Assembly: GCA_026127935.1 (NCBI GenBank)
Contig: JAJSLL010000003.1
Span: forward strand, 46,781-110,780
Origin: Thermoplasmatales archaeon
Lineage (GTDB): Archaea; Thermoplasmatota; Thermoplasmata; Thermoplasmatales; GCA-001856825
Direction of reading: 5' to 3'
DNA: 64,000 bases
Positions 39,478-63,240 of this stretch are shown here, piece after piece. How positions within the stretch are numbered: position 1 is the stretch's first letter; the number at the start of each line of letters is the position of its first letter. The position numbers were made by a program, and so were the translations under genes. The notes below the pieces were generated by a model. It was given only the letters and a program-made list of their open reading frames with translations. It had not been told where the DNA came from and searched no databases.

Positions 39478-40254
39478 TTATAGAAGTCTTGAAACTTCTG
39501 TTTCAAGCGGATCTACTTCAATGTCCACGCTTAATACCTGTTCGTGTTCGCTGAGTACCTCATCGATCGTATCTTCTATGATCTTGCTGAAGGAATCGCT
39601 GTATTTGCCGTAAAGTGTTTCGTACAGTTTCAATTGGCTTTCTATGGTTGCTTCAATGTCTTCCTTTATCCTTGCGTTTATCTCTCTGAGTGATTCGAAT
39701 TCGTTGTTGTCGTAAACTTCCATGCTGTCCGTCTCTTTCCTGAGCTGCACAAGAGTTCTATCGGCGACTTCTTTCCTGTTGTCTTCGAACTCGAAAGGTC
39801 TCACTGCAAATATTTTGAATGGTACTTTTTCCCCTTTCATCAATTTAACCATCTCAACAGTTCCTCCTGATCCCGTTCCTCCACCCAGTGCCGTTACTAC
39901 GAGCACCAGATCTGCACGTTTCAGTAGCTGTATATCGATCAGTTTGGAGTCTTCTCTGAAAGCTTTCTTTGCAACTTCGACATGTCCACCAGAGTCCCCG
40001 TTGCCGAGAATATATTCCCTTCCGATGTTCACCGTGGTGACATCGCTTCGTTTGGCATTCGAAAGGGCATCTGTGTTGAGGCAGTACTGATCGACTTCTC
40101 TTCTCTTCTTGTTGAGTTCCGACACAATATTGCAACCTCCGCCGCCTATACCAACGCACACTATGGTAGGTTCCAGAATTTTTCTTTCTTTCTTTAGACC
40201 TTTAGTCAGTTTGTACAATATTTGAGTACTTATGTCATCTATCACTTTTTTCAC
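39478..40254 (-). CDS. Short FtsZ/tubulin-superfamily GTPase-like protein lacking a recognisable T7 loop and canonical C-terminal domain
   Basis: 258 aa; T1-like VCVGIGGGGCNIVSEL, NTDA, tubulin signature VTALGGGTGSGGTVEMVKLM, AVRPFEFEDNRKEVADR; the remaining ~80 aa are helical/acidic and lack an NxDFxD motif. Confidence 0.8.
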   Translation of the reverse strand: MKKVIDDISTQILYKLTKGLKKERKILEPTIVCVGIGGGGCNIVSELNKKRREVDQYCLNTDALSNAKRSDVTTVNIGREYILGNGDSGGHVEVAKKAFREDSKLIDIQLLKRADLVLVVTALGGGTGSGGTVEMVKLMKGEKVPFKIFAVRPFEFEDNRKEVADRTLVQLRKETDSMEVYDNNEFESLREINARIKEDIEATIESQLKLYETLYGKYSDSFSKIIEDTIDEVLSEHEQVLSVDIEVDPLETEVSRLL

Positions 40255-40657
40255 CCCTCTGTTTTTCCTCGCCCCTCTCTTCGAAAGGAAGATCCTCGAA
40301 ATTCAAAAGGTTCCTATCGTCAAGATAGCCCCTGACGAGCTTGTTGAGCCACATCGGCAGGAAGTGTTCTTCATTGACTTTCCGTATTATAAACTCTATT
40401 GCATCATATCTGTCCTTGAAGAGACCCTTCGACACCATCTGATCCAAAGTGTTTAGAGTTGCTTTCGAAAGTTTTACTTCACTGTCTTCCACCGAGGGTT
40501 GTCGTGTCTGAGGGTGCTGTATGTACTCATAGACGGCCGCCCTTATCAGTTCCGATTTTGACTTATACTTGAGCGAAGTGCTAAGAAAGTCGTTTATTTC
40601 GTCATCTTCCTGCGGTGTAAGACGAAGTGCTATTCTCCTGGTACTATTAGAATCCAC
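40235..40657 (-). CDS. Ribbon-helix-helix transcriptional regulator (possibly two RHH-like segments), CdrS-like by context
   Basis: Start refined from 40762 to GTG 40657: VDSNSTRRIALRLTPQEDDEINDFLSTSLKYKSKSELIRAAVYEYIQ (RHH) followed by EVKLSKATLNTLDQMVSKGLFKDRYDAIEFIIRKVNEE. Overlaps the FtsZ-like gene by 20 nt. Confidence 0.75.
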   Translation of the reverse strand: MDSNSTRRIALRLTPQEDDEINDFLSTSLKYKSKSELIRAAVYEYIQHPQTRQPSVEDSEVKLSKATLNTLDQMVSKGLFKDRYDAIEFIIRKVNEEHFLPMWLNKLVRGYLDDRNLLNFEDLPFEERGEEKQRGEKSDR

Positions 40658-40852
40658 TTGGAACCAATCCTCTCTATAAAGACATAAATGTATCTGTATA
40701 TAAATATTTCTAATCAAGGCACACAAATAATTTAGTAGTTTCCTAAAATAATAATAAATCAAAAATAATGTAAATTAGCTGTAGTACGCCTTATTTGCGT
40801 TAATATGCCAATTTTCAAATTACCTATTTGTTTGACAAGTTCTTTCGCAGTT

Positions 40853-40880
40853 GTCATACAATGTAATTACATTGAATGAC
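40853..40880. promoter_or_regulatory. 28-bp near-perfect palindrome, candidate operator
   Basis: GTCATACAATGTAATTACATTGAATGAC; central CAATGTAATTACATTG (40859-40874) is a perfect 16-bp palindrome and the full 28 bp has one mismatched pair; intergenic between divergent RHH and aIF2beta genes. Confidence 0.65.
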
Positions 40881-40890
40881 GCTGTTTGCC

Positions 40891-40901
40891 ATTTGTCAAA
40901 T
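40891..40901. promoter_or_regulatory. Candidate operator 11-mer ATTTGTCAAAT (copy 1)
   Basis: ATTTG-T-CAAAT inverted repeat; identical 11-mer found at 45001-45011 upstream of ftsZ. Confidence 0.5.
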
Positions 40902-40971
40902 ATTGTCATTCATTTGGCTAAAAGTTGTCAAATTTTGTAAAAATTATTTAATCAGATTCCTATTTCACTCC

Positions 40972-41589
40972 GTGGATGAACAGAATTATACGGACCTTCT
41001 GAAGAAGGTAAAATCTTCTGTGCAGAAGAGAGAAGAAATGAAGAGATTTCAAATTCCTAAACCTGAAACAATCACAGAAGGAAAGCTCACAATAATAAAA
41101 AACTTCAGAGACATAGTTGGCGTCATAAATAGGGACGAGTCACATATTTACAAGTATCTCATCAAACAGTTTGGACTTTCTGGAGATGTTGCGGACGGTA
41201 GACTGATATTCAAGGGAAAGCCGCCAGAAGGCAGTATTGAAAAAGCGTTCCAGGAGTACCTTAGAATCTACGTCCAATGTTATGAGTGCGGAAATTTCGA
41301 CACAGAAATGATCAGGGAGAACAGGAATGAACTGATAAGGTGTAAGGCCTGCGGGGCTGAGAGACCGCTCTTTGCACATAAAGAGATCAAGTATTCAGAA
41401 GGAAAGATAGAGGAAGGCAAGACATACGATCTCGAGATCACTGACCTCAACAGGGACGGAGATGGAATTTCGATAAAAGGAGACACAACGGTCATAATCC
41501 CGGGAGCAAAGAAAGGGCAGAAAGTGACTGTCAGGATCGATAGGATCAGAAAGAATTATGCGCTTGGCATTTTGGTGAAGAAGGCTTGA
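40972..41589 (+). CDS. Translation initiation factor aIF2 beta with C-terminal TRAM domain
   Basis: Start refined from 40876 to GTG 40972. KPETITEGKLTIIKNFRDI, zinc ribbon CYECGNFDT...IRCKACGAERP, then TRAM-like YDLEITDLNRDGDGISIKGDTTVIIPGAKKGQKVTVRIDRIRKNYALGILV. Confidence 0.92.
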   Translation: MDEQNYTDLLKKVKSSVQKREEMKRFQIPKPETITEGKLTIIKNFRDIVGVINRDESHIYKYLIKQFGLSGDVADGRLIFKGKPPEGSIEKAFQEYLRIYVQCYECGNFDTEMIRENRNELIRCKACGAERPLFAHKEIKYSEGKIEEGKTYDLEITDLNRDGDGISIKGDTTVIIPGAKKGQKVTVRIDRIRKNYALGILVKKA

Positions 41590-44983: not shown

Positions 44984-45011
44984 ATATAAATAACAAAATA
45001 ATTTGTCAAAT
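44984..45011 (+). promoter_or_regulatory. ftsZ promoter: TATA-like box and overlapping ATTTGTCAAAT operator candidate (copy 2)
   Basis: ATATAAATA at 44984-44992, ATTTGTCAAAT at 45001-45011, ATG of ftsZ at 45023. Confidence 0.5.
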
Positions 45012-45022
45012 CGGTAGTAATC

Positions 45023-46015
45023 ATGCCTGATAACGAAACTTTTCAAGATAACGATGCTGAGTTGATTGAGTTATTAAAAGGCCTGAAAACAAGCATCAAA
45101 ATTTTTGGGTGTGGGGGTTCAGGGTCAAATACTATTACTAGGATAATGGAGGAAGGAATACAGGGTGCTGATATTATTGCTGCCAATACTGATGCCCAGC
45201 ACCTTCTTCTCACTCAAGCATCCAGGAAGATTCTCCTTGGGAGAAGAACTACCAGAGGACTCGGGGCCGGTGCCATTCCTCAGATCGGCGAAATGTCGGC
45301 CAGAGAGGCGGAGATTGACATTAACGCTGCGGTAGAAGGAGCCGATATCGTATTCGTCACTGCAGGAATGGGAGGAGGAACAGGAACTGGATCTGCTCCG
45401 GTCGTAGCAGACGTTGCGAAGAAAGCTGGTGCACTGGTTATCTCGGTGGTGACAACACCTTTCAAGTCCGAAGGCGCAATGAGAAAAGAGAATGCCCTGT
45501 GGGGATTGGAGAAATTGAAGGAGAAATCAGACACAATCGTCATTATTCCTAACGAGAAGCTTTTGGAAATTGTTCCGAGGTTGCCTCTAAATGAGGCATT
45601 CAGGTACGCCGATGAGACGCTTATGAAATCTATAAAAGGTTTGACGGAACTAGTGACTAAACCGGGACTTGTCAACCTTGATTTCAATGACCTGAAAACT
45701 GTGATGAAAGACGGTGGAACTGCAATGATAGGAATGGGTCAGTCTGGTTCTCAAGACAGAGCTCTGGAAGCTGCAAAGAAAGCATTAAGTTCGCCACTAC
45801 TCGATCTCGAAGTCTCCACAGCAACATCCGCTATCGTTTCGGTGACAGGAAGCTCGAATATGTCTGTTGAAGAGGCTCATGCTGTTCTCGAAGAAGTAAA
45901 GAAGAGGATCAACCCAAATGCAAGGATAATATGGGGAGCAAGAATAGACGAATCTATGAAAAATGATATAAAGGTATTAGCCATACTGGTGGGAGCCAAA
46001 AACAAGTACGTTTAG
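45023..46015 (+). CDS. ftsZ: Cell division protein FtsZ
   Basis: 330 aa; IKIFGCGGSGSNTITRI, NTDAQHL, VTAGMGGGTGTGSAPVVADVAKK, T7-like VNLDFNDLKTVM. Confidence 0.96.
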   Translation: MPDNETFQDNDAELIELLKGLKTSIKIFGCGGSGSNTITRIMEEGIQGADIIAANTDAQHLLLTQASRKILLGRRTTRGLGAGAIPQIGEMSAREAEIDINAAVEGADIVFVTAGMGGGTGTGSAPVVADVAKKAGALVISVVTTPFKSEGAMRKENALWGLEKLKEKSDTIVIIPNEKLLEIVPRLPLNEAFRYADETLMKSIKGLTELVTKPGLVNLDFNDLKTVMKDGGTAMIGMGQSGSQDRALEAAKKALSSPLLDLEVSTATSAIVSVTGSSNMSVEEAHAVLEEVKKRINPNARIIWGARIDESMKNDIKVLAILVGAKNKYV

Positions 46016-62234: not shown

Positions 62235-62622
62235 TTTATGATTTCTGGTTAGTTAATAACAGTTTCCAATTGATGTATTTGTTCGCACTATACGAGGCAA
62301 ACCAATTCTTCTGAGCCCTCCCAAACGCGGTACGTTCGTTGGTGCGAACATCTCAAAATCCCATAATATGGAGAGGATAGTGTTGTCTGACACAAAATTC
62401 TCATTTTTTCATCTCTGAGAGCTGTTAAACAGATTAACTGACTCCATGTCTTAAGAACGGTGAAGAGAATACCACAATCTAAAAGGTAAAAAAAAATAGA
62501 ATCAGTCCAGAAGGCCCTAAAATTAACATTCGCGATTATCGTAGGGTAAAAATGTTTTTTGAACTGTCCATTAATTCTGCCAATAGGAAAACCTTTTATT
62601 CTTATTATATATTGTCTGACTA

Positions 62623-63240
62623 ATGTCACACATACTACTGAAAGGGTGGCACAGATACAAGGAAAAGGGAAAATATTCCTGGAAATCCTCACTCGTGATC
62701 GCATTTGTAGCAACAATGCTACTCTGGTGGTTACCAATTTTCGGTCCAATGCTTTCGGGATATGTCTCGGGCAGGACTTCGGGGTCTAAATATAAAGGCA
62801 TAATCATAACGGCAATGGTTGCAGCTATAATCGGTCTGGTCTCTTTTGTATTGTCTTACATTCAGTCCGTGCCCAGTTACATCAGCTACTACTTTGGCTC
62901 TATCATTGTATATCACCTTCAGACAATTTCCCCATACGGAGCTTGGTTCCTTTCTTCACTAGGACAAATGTTCACGAGCTTCCCTTATTATCTCTCGTAC
63001 TTCCCTCCAAACTGGGCGATCCTCGTCGCGTTTGGATTTGTTGGCGGAGCAATGTCGGAGCTACTTGTAAGGGACACCGACAGAAAGAGCGTGCTTTCTG
63101 CAAGACATCCAGTCCACAACGATGCCAAGGCACTGACCCCGAAACAAGTCGAATACGCACCCCCTGCGGATCCTCATCCACTTCTCAAGAAAATCATAAG
63201 GGACAAAGATGCACAGGATTCTTCAGAGGACTATATCTAA
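62623..63240 (+). CDS. Integral membrane protein of unknown function (~4 TM with soluble C-terminal tail)
   Basis: 205 aa; GPMLSGYVSGRTSGSKYKGIIITAMVAAIIGLVSFVL; hydrophilic tail. Confidence 0.7.
   Translation: MSHILLKGWHRYKEKGKYSWKSSLVIAFVATMLLWWLPIFGPMLSGYVSGRTSGSKYKGIIITAMVAAIIGLVSFVLSYIQSVPSYISYYFGSIIVYHLQTISPYGAWFLSSLGQMFTSFPYYLSYFPPNWAILVAFGFVGGAMSELLVRDTDRKSVLSARHPVHNDAKALTPKQVEYAPPADPHPLLKKIIRDKDAQDSSEDYI

What the first reader, a model, noticed from the sequence alone, without database searches (positions are those of the whole stretch)
40831..40933. Cluster of helically phased TTGTCA elements beside the RHH gene, with an identical 11-mer at the ftsZ promoter
Seen: TTGTCA starts at 40851, 40893, 40903 and 40925 (spacings 42, 10 and 22 bp, about 4, 1 and 2 helical turns), plus one inverted copy (TGACAA, 40833-40838). 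The 11-mer ATTTGTCAAAT at 40891-40901 recurs exactly at 45001-45011, between a TATA-like box (44984) and the ftsZ ATG (45023). Inference: a shared operator, plausibly bound by the adjacent RHH protein, links the aIF2beta/RHH intergenic region to ftsZ. Caveat: the cluster sits closer to the aIF2beta promoter than to the RHH promoter (TATA ~40697-40704). I saw only these two copies of the 11-mer but did not search exhaustively.
Basis: partly seen in the sequence, partly recalled or inferred. Interest (0 to 1): 0.72.

Follow-up and report, generated by a model that had tools for sequence, protein, structure and literature searches.

The report
Conserved regulator-binding array near division genes
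In an archaeon probably related to Thermoplasma, a cluster of short DNA repeats beside a small DNA-binding-protein gene is kept at fixed spacing in its relatives, and related repeats sit at the start of its cell-division (FtsZ) genes, which points to a local version of the known CdrS division-control system.

Summary
In detail: all TTGTCA positions and both 11-mers are where stated. TTGTCA is the only hexamer of 2,079 with five copies within about 104 bp of the window. Four of the five cluster elements are conserved in nine congeneric species with fixed geometry (19, 42-43 and 10 bp); the fifth (40925) is not.

The RHH gene heads an overlapping operon with a short FtsZ-like GTPase gene, as CdrS-FtsZ2 does in haloarchaea. 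The elements follow the RHH gene, not aIF2beta: in family f3, where the neighbour differs, GTCATAC is in 13/13 RHH promoters. I conclude an RHH operator array, most likely autoregulatory.

The link to ftsZ1 through the 11-mer is weaker. In relatives the site is TTTGTCAAA or TTTATCAAA, and the 9-mer core is not enriched genome-wide (33 versus 27 control). Better-conserved related elements (GTCATAC, TGTCWGACA) lie between TATA box and start codon of the other two ftsZ genes, of a second RHH/FtsZ-like operon (the likelier CdrS-FtsZ2 orthologue, with a degenerate FtsZ), and of a membrane-protein gene in the window. Which RHH protein binds which site is inferred; I found no binding data. New variant of a known kind.

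The parts
40235..40657 (-). RHH-A: CdrS-like ribbon-helix-helix protein (140 aa, GTG start); recognition strand RIALR, second half looks like a degenerate RHH repeat
   Evidence: NCBIfam NF058555 CdrS E 2.7e-7, 30.5 bits, below cut-off 100; aligned with the tandem-RHH protein
39478..40254 (-). short FtsZ-like protein (258 aa), tubulin/FtsZ GTPase domain only, overlaps the RHH gene by 20 bp
   Evidence: Pfam PF00091 E 2.9e-19, no FtsZ_C; same pairing in the genomes inspected across the order
40697..40706 (-). TATA box of the RHH-A operon
   Evidence: 94% mean column identity in 9 species
40831..40838 (-). element E1, inverted TTGTCAAA (TTYGAC in relatives)
   Evidence: conserved in 9/9 congeners, 19 bp from E2
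40851..40859 (+). element E2, TTGTCATAC
   Evidence: 96% mean column identity in 9 species; GTCATAC is the top heptamer at RHH-A promoters of family f3, 13/13 sequences
   Evidence: TGTCRAA in 9/9 congeners
40903..40910 (+). element E4, TTGTCATT, 10 bp after E3
   Evidence: 10-bp spacing fixed in 9/9; 89% mean column identity
40925..40933 (+). fifth copy, TTGTCAAAT; probably not part of the conserved array
   Evidence: 53% mean column identity, absent outside near-identical genomes
40978..41589 (+). aIF2beta, divergent neighbour, TATA about 40943-40952
   Evidence: Pfam PF01873 and NF008993
45001..45011 (+). ATTTGTCAAAT between TATA box (44984-44993) and ATG of ftsZ1
   Evidence: element columns 0.92 versus 0.40 in the 60 columns upstream over 14 species, but TTTRTCAAA and lost in two species
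45023..46015 (+). ftsZ1, followed by secE and translation genes
   Evidence: TIGR00065 399 bits; SecE next
62612..62620 (+). TTGTCTGAC, CdrS-type element ending 2 bp before a start codon
   Evidence: TATTGTCWGAC invariant in 9/9 species
62623..63240 (+). 205-aa predicted membrane protein, candidate regulon member
   Evidence: found in 9 of 11 genomes of the genus; membrane nature judged from the sequence only

Best explanation
The cluster at 40831-40910 is a four-site operator array of an RHH regulator of the CdrS kind. RHH-A dimers most likely bind the TTGTCA-type half-sites side by side on one face of the DNA and control their own operon (RHH-A plus the short FtsZ-like protein). Related operators, placed between TATA box and start codon, probably repress or tune the ftsZ genes, so the cell ties the amount of its FtsZ proteins to the RHH regulators. 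Shown: the array, its conservation and geometry, the RHH/FtsZ-like operon, the related elements at the other ftsZ and RHH promoters. Inferred: that RHH proteins bind, which of the two RHH proteins binds which site, and the sign of the regulation.
For: Element columns 0.90 identical versus 0.66 for the rest of the spacer; only 2 of 175 circular shifts reach the observed value, the true position included. De-novo k-mer counts at RHH-A promoters: TTGTCA is the top hexamer in family f1 (27 vs 4.3), GTCATAC the top heptamer in f3 (21 vs 0.8, 13/13), TGTACAT the top heptamer in f6 (49 vs 4.0). In f3 genome G007 the upstream neighbour is not aIF2beta, yet the elements remain, so they belong to the RHH gene. 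The recognition strand differs with the motif: RIALR in f1 (14/14), R-x-T-x-R in f3 (4/4), K-x-T-x-R in f6 (10/10). The other ftsZ/RHH promoters of the genome carry related elements: CGTCATACATATAGATGACA (13 species, 0.98), CGTCAGACATACGTATG (14, 0.94), TGTCWGACA (13, 0.96). TATA-N2-16-GTCWKACA has only four distinct sites in the whole genome, two of them ftsZ promoters. A second family (f6) has TGTCAGACATATG or TTATCAGACATATG ending at the ATG of one ftsZ. Precedent: CdrS ChIP-seq site upstream of ftsZ1 in Haloferax (PMC8406309).
Against: No binding or expression data. The 9-mer core (33 vs 27 control) and TGTCAGACA (7 vs 7) are not enriched genome-wide, and the TATA-plus-operator pattern is not more frequent than its reversed control. 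The ftsZ1 site is degenerate in relatives. In f6 the RHH-A motif (TGTACAT) is absent from the ftsZ promoters sampled, so a direct RHH-A to ftsZ link does not hold there. The motif/strand correlation rests on three clades.
Confidence: 0.64

Rival explanations
1. The tandem-RHH protein on contig C29 (the probable CdrS orthologue), not the adjacent RHH-A, binds both the cluster and the ftsZ promoters; RHH-A is only one of its targets.
For: It has the stronger CdrS match (52.7 bits); tandem-RHH matches occur in 51/51 good genomes of the order; it is followed by a canonical FtsZ in f2/f3; its own promoter has TGTCWGACA, and FtsZ-C9 and the f6 ftsZ promoters have GTCWGACAT. One haloarchaeal ftsZ1 promoter has CGTCAGACAGTCGTCTGACG.
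Against: In f6 the protein is still present and its motif at ftsZ is unchanged, while the RHH-A promoter motif switched to TGTACAT, which suggests that a different protein reads the RHH-A promoter.
Confidence: 0.22
2. The cluster regulates aIF2beta (translation), lying just upstream of its TATA box; the RHH gene is a bystander.
For: It sits directly upstream of the aIF2beta TATA box and about 125-210 bp from the RHH TATA box.
Against: In f3, where the genome inspected (G007) has a different upstream gene, RHH-A promoters keep GTCATAC in 13/13 sequences.
Confidence: 0.12
3. The ftsZ1 11-mer is core-promoter or initiator sequence, or chance; its identity with E3 is a coincidence in AT-rich DNA.
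For: It lies in the initiator region; the core G is A in 5 of 12 relatives; about 2.2 copies of the 11-mer are expected per genome against 5 seen; no genome-wide enrichment of the 9-mer.
Against: Element columns 0.92 versus 0.40 upstream in 14 species; the other ftsZ promoters have related elements at the same place.
Confidence: 0.4

Closest known systems
CdrS-FtsZ2 system of haloarchaea (Darnell 2020, PMC7439475; Liao 2021, PMC8406309)
   Same: RHH protein encoded directly before an FtsZ-family gene; candidate operators at ftsZ promoters
   Different: Here there are two such pairs; RHH-A is 140 aa rather than 61 aa and its partner is a GTPase-domain-only FtsZ; sites lie between TATA box and start codon, whereas Haloferax CdrS sites lie mostly 41-110 nt upstream of the transcription start; possible autoregulation, which those two papers' texts do not mention by that word
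aCcr1 RHH cell-cycle regulator of Saccharolobus
   Same: RHH factor controlling a division gene (cdvA), as summarised in PMC7617429
   Different: Different division machinery (CdvA/ESCRT-III); only a trace profile match here (E 0.005 for the tandem RHH, 0.09 for RHH-A, far below cut-off)
Multi-site RHH operators of CopG/NikR/Arc type
   Same: Short half-sites repeated near the regulator gene (from general knowledge)
   Different: No binding data here; half-sites TTGTCA/GTCATAC derived only from conservation

Membership tests
CdrS (for RHH-A, window 40235-40657) | match to NCBIfam NF058555 at its curated cut-off | tested here: not met
   30.5 bits against a cut-off of 100; the model is named for the haloarchaeal protein
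CdrS (for RHH-A, window 40235-40657) | encoded directly upstream of ftsZ2 | tested here: inconclusive
   followed by an FtsZ-family gene with a 20-bp overlap, but that gene lacks FtsZ_C and is not shown to be FtsZ2
CdrS (for the tandem-RHH protein, L071 3501-3842) | match to NCBIfam NF058555 at its curated cut-off | tested here: not met
   52.7 bits against a cut-off of 100
CdrS (for the tandem-RHH protein, L071 3501-3842) | encoded directly upstream of an FtsZ gene | tested here: met
   canonical FtsZ downstream in f2/f3; in f1 a degenerate FtsZ (hhalign 93.7%, E 1.8e-7; Foldseek E 1e-15 to FtsZ)
CdrS | binds upstream of ftsZ1 in vivo | not testable with these tools
   only a conserved element at the place
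CdrS | recognises the Haloferax ChIP-seq motif | tested here: inconclusive
   motif letters are only in a figure that is not held; one haloarchaeal ftsZ1 promoter has a GTCAGAC palindrome at about the reported distance
RHH (PF01402) superfamily | RHH domain | tested here: met
   tandem protein PF01402 E 2.3e-11; RHH-A only E 0.011 in Pfam, but NF058555 E 2.7e-7

The most novel reading that the evidence does not exclude
This archaeal order runs two parallel RHH/FtsZ-family operons in which a degenerate or GTPase-only FtsZ, encoded in overlap with the RHH regulator, acts as a sensor or co-regulator that feeds the state of the division ring back onto transcription of the ftsZ genes.
Probability: 0.12. 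Interest if true: 0.82.

Novelty: new variant of a known kind. Interest (0 to 1): 0.52.

Why it matters
Control of archaeal division genes has been studied mainly in haloarchaea and, for a different machinery, in Sulfolobales. A conserved operator code at ftsZ promoters in another archaeal lineage gives specific DNA sites and two specific proteins to test. The pairing of an RHH factor with a degenerate FtsZ is a puzzle that such tests would address.

Tried and rejected
Genome-wide enrichment as proof: rejected, since neither TTTGTCAAA nor TGTCAGACA exceeds the reversed control. The fifth TTGTCA (40925) was dropped from the array. TGTACAT at f6 ftsZ promoters was sought and not found. The aCcr1 paper is not held. 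No paper held joins CdrS, FtsZ2 and Thermoplasmatales.

Full report
Check of the observation. All stated positions are correct. The 11-mer is found twice in the window (0.09 expected) and five times in the 1.58-Mb genome. The other three copies are in a glycosyltransferase-like gene, in a second coding region and in one intergenic region. The cluster itself is unusual: five TTGTCA in 315 bp against 0.33 in shuffles, and the only hexamer with five copies inside about 104 bp of the window.

Surroundings. The RHH gene (40235-40657, minus strand; RHH-A below) overlaps by 20 bp a gene for a 258-aa protein with a tubulin/FtsZ GTPase domain and no FtsZ_C domain. NCBIfam's CdrS model finds RHH-A at E 2.7e-7, below its cut-off. 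The canonical FtsZ at 45023-46015 is followed by SecE, in line with the protein-synthesis context that PMC9871819 reports for archaeal ftsZ1. The genome has two more canonical FtsZ genes, C1:19676 (divergent from a Cdc48-like ATPase gene) and C9:47613. It also has a second RHH/FtsZ-like pair on C29: a 113-aa tandem-RHH protein (CdrS model 52.7 bits) overlapping a 289-aa protein without recognisable Pfam domain. In families f2 and f3 of the same order the tandem-RHH gene is followed by a canonical FtsZ with GGGTGTG. The 289-aa protein is related to these by profile comparison (93.7%, E 1.8e-7) and its model (pLDDT 87) matches FtsZ structures at E 1e-15. So the C29 pair is the better candidate for CdrS-FtsZ2, with FtsZ2 degenerate in this family; the window's pair is a second, paralogous one. 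Matches to the tandem-RHH protein are found in 51 of 51 good genomes of the order.

Footprinting of the cluster. In nine congeneric species E1 to E4 keep their spacing (19, 42-43, 10 bp) and have 0.90 mean column identity against 0.66 elsewhere in the spacer; the fifth copy has 0.53. Without any motif given, the most enriched hexamer at RHH-A promoters of family f1 is TTGTCA, in f3 the most enriched heptamer is GTCATAC (13/13 promoters), in f6 it is TGTACAT. Near-identical genomes inflate the f1 counts, but f3 and f6 are separate families. In the f3 genome inspected (G007) a co-directional gene, not aIF2beta, lies upstream, so the elements go with the RHH gene. The first strand of RHH-A, the part that contacts DNA in RHH proteins (general knowledge), reads RIALR in f1, R-x-T-x-R in f3 and K-x-T-x-R in f6, in step with the motif. 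This fits autoregulation by RHH-A but rests on three clades.

Footprinting of ftsZ promoters. The ftsZ1 element is TTTGTCAAA in seven species, TTTATCAAA in five and absent in two, so the exact 11-mer is not the conserved unit. The FtsZ-C1 promoter has CGTCATACATATAGATGACA (0.98 over 13 species) and FtsZ-C9 has CGTCAGACATACGTATG (0.94 over 14), both between TATA box and start codon; the tandem-RHH promoter has TGTCWGACA (0.96 over 13), also in f2 and f3. The pattern TATA-N2-16-GTCWKACA has four distinct sites in the genome, two being ftsZ promoters, although the pattern as a whole is not more frequent than its reversed control. In f6 several genomes have TGTCAGACATATG or TTATCAGACATATG ending at the ATG of one ftsZ. 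In the window, the gene at 62623 has TTGTCTGAC before its ATG, conserved as TATTGTCWGAC in nine species.

Interpretation. The best reading is an RHH operator array that controls its own RHH/FtsZ-like operon, in a genome where RHH-type operators also mark the ftsZ promoters. Sites between TATA and start suggest repression by blocking the transcription machinery; this differs from Haloferax, where most CdrS sites lie 41-110 nt upstream of the start site and ftsZ1 transcript falls when cdrS is silenced (PMC8406309). Whether RHH-A or the tandem-RHH protein occupies the ftsZ sites is open; f6 argues that RHH-A does not do so there. One haloarchaeal ftsZ1 promoter (Natronorubrum bangense) has the perfect palindrome CGTCAGACAGTCGTCTGACG, the same half-site as the tandem-RHH operator; this is a single case and not a test.

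Limits. FtsZ1/FtsZ2 names here rest on gene neighbourhood, not on a tree.

Noticed in passing
L071 2639-3842 (G000:C29): Second RHH/FtsZ pair: tandem-RHH protein overlapping a degenerate 289-aa FtsZ that lacks the GGGTGTG loop but keeps the FtsZ fold.
   Followed up: yes
window 62612-63240: Membrane-protein gene with TTGTCTGAC just before its start codon, conserved as TTGTCWGAC in nine species; candidate regulon member.
   Followed up: partly
L208 1400-1955 (G000:C9:22227): A further mini FtsZ-like protein (175 aa) downstream of a Cdc6-like gene, with TTGTCATATCAATGTCAT between TATA box and start.
   Followed up: partly
L200 1634-1790 (G000:C22:18434): TGTCAGACAATTATCATACAGATGTCA after a TATA-like box, before a possible 40-aa protein; near-identical stretch also in G026 and G033.
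   Followed up: partly
L069 4283-4575: ftsZ (C1) is divergent from a Cdc48-like ATPase gene with a conserved GACAATTGTCTGACA-like stretch in between; Haloferax CdrS also binds upstream of a cdc48 gene.
   Followed up: partly
RHH-A promoters of family f6: The enriched element switches from TTGTCA/GTCATAC to TGTACAT(AC), together with K in place of R at the start of the recognition strand.
   Followed up: partly
L129 about 2298-2317 (Natronorubrum bangense): ftsZ1 on an 828-kb replicon annotated as plasmid, with a perfect 20-bp palindrome CGTCAGACAGTCGTCTGACG upstream.
   Followed up: partly
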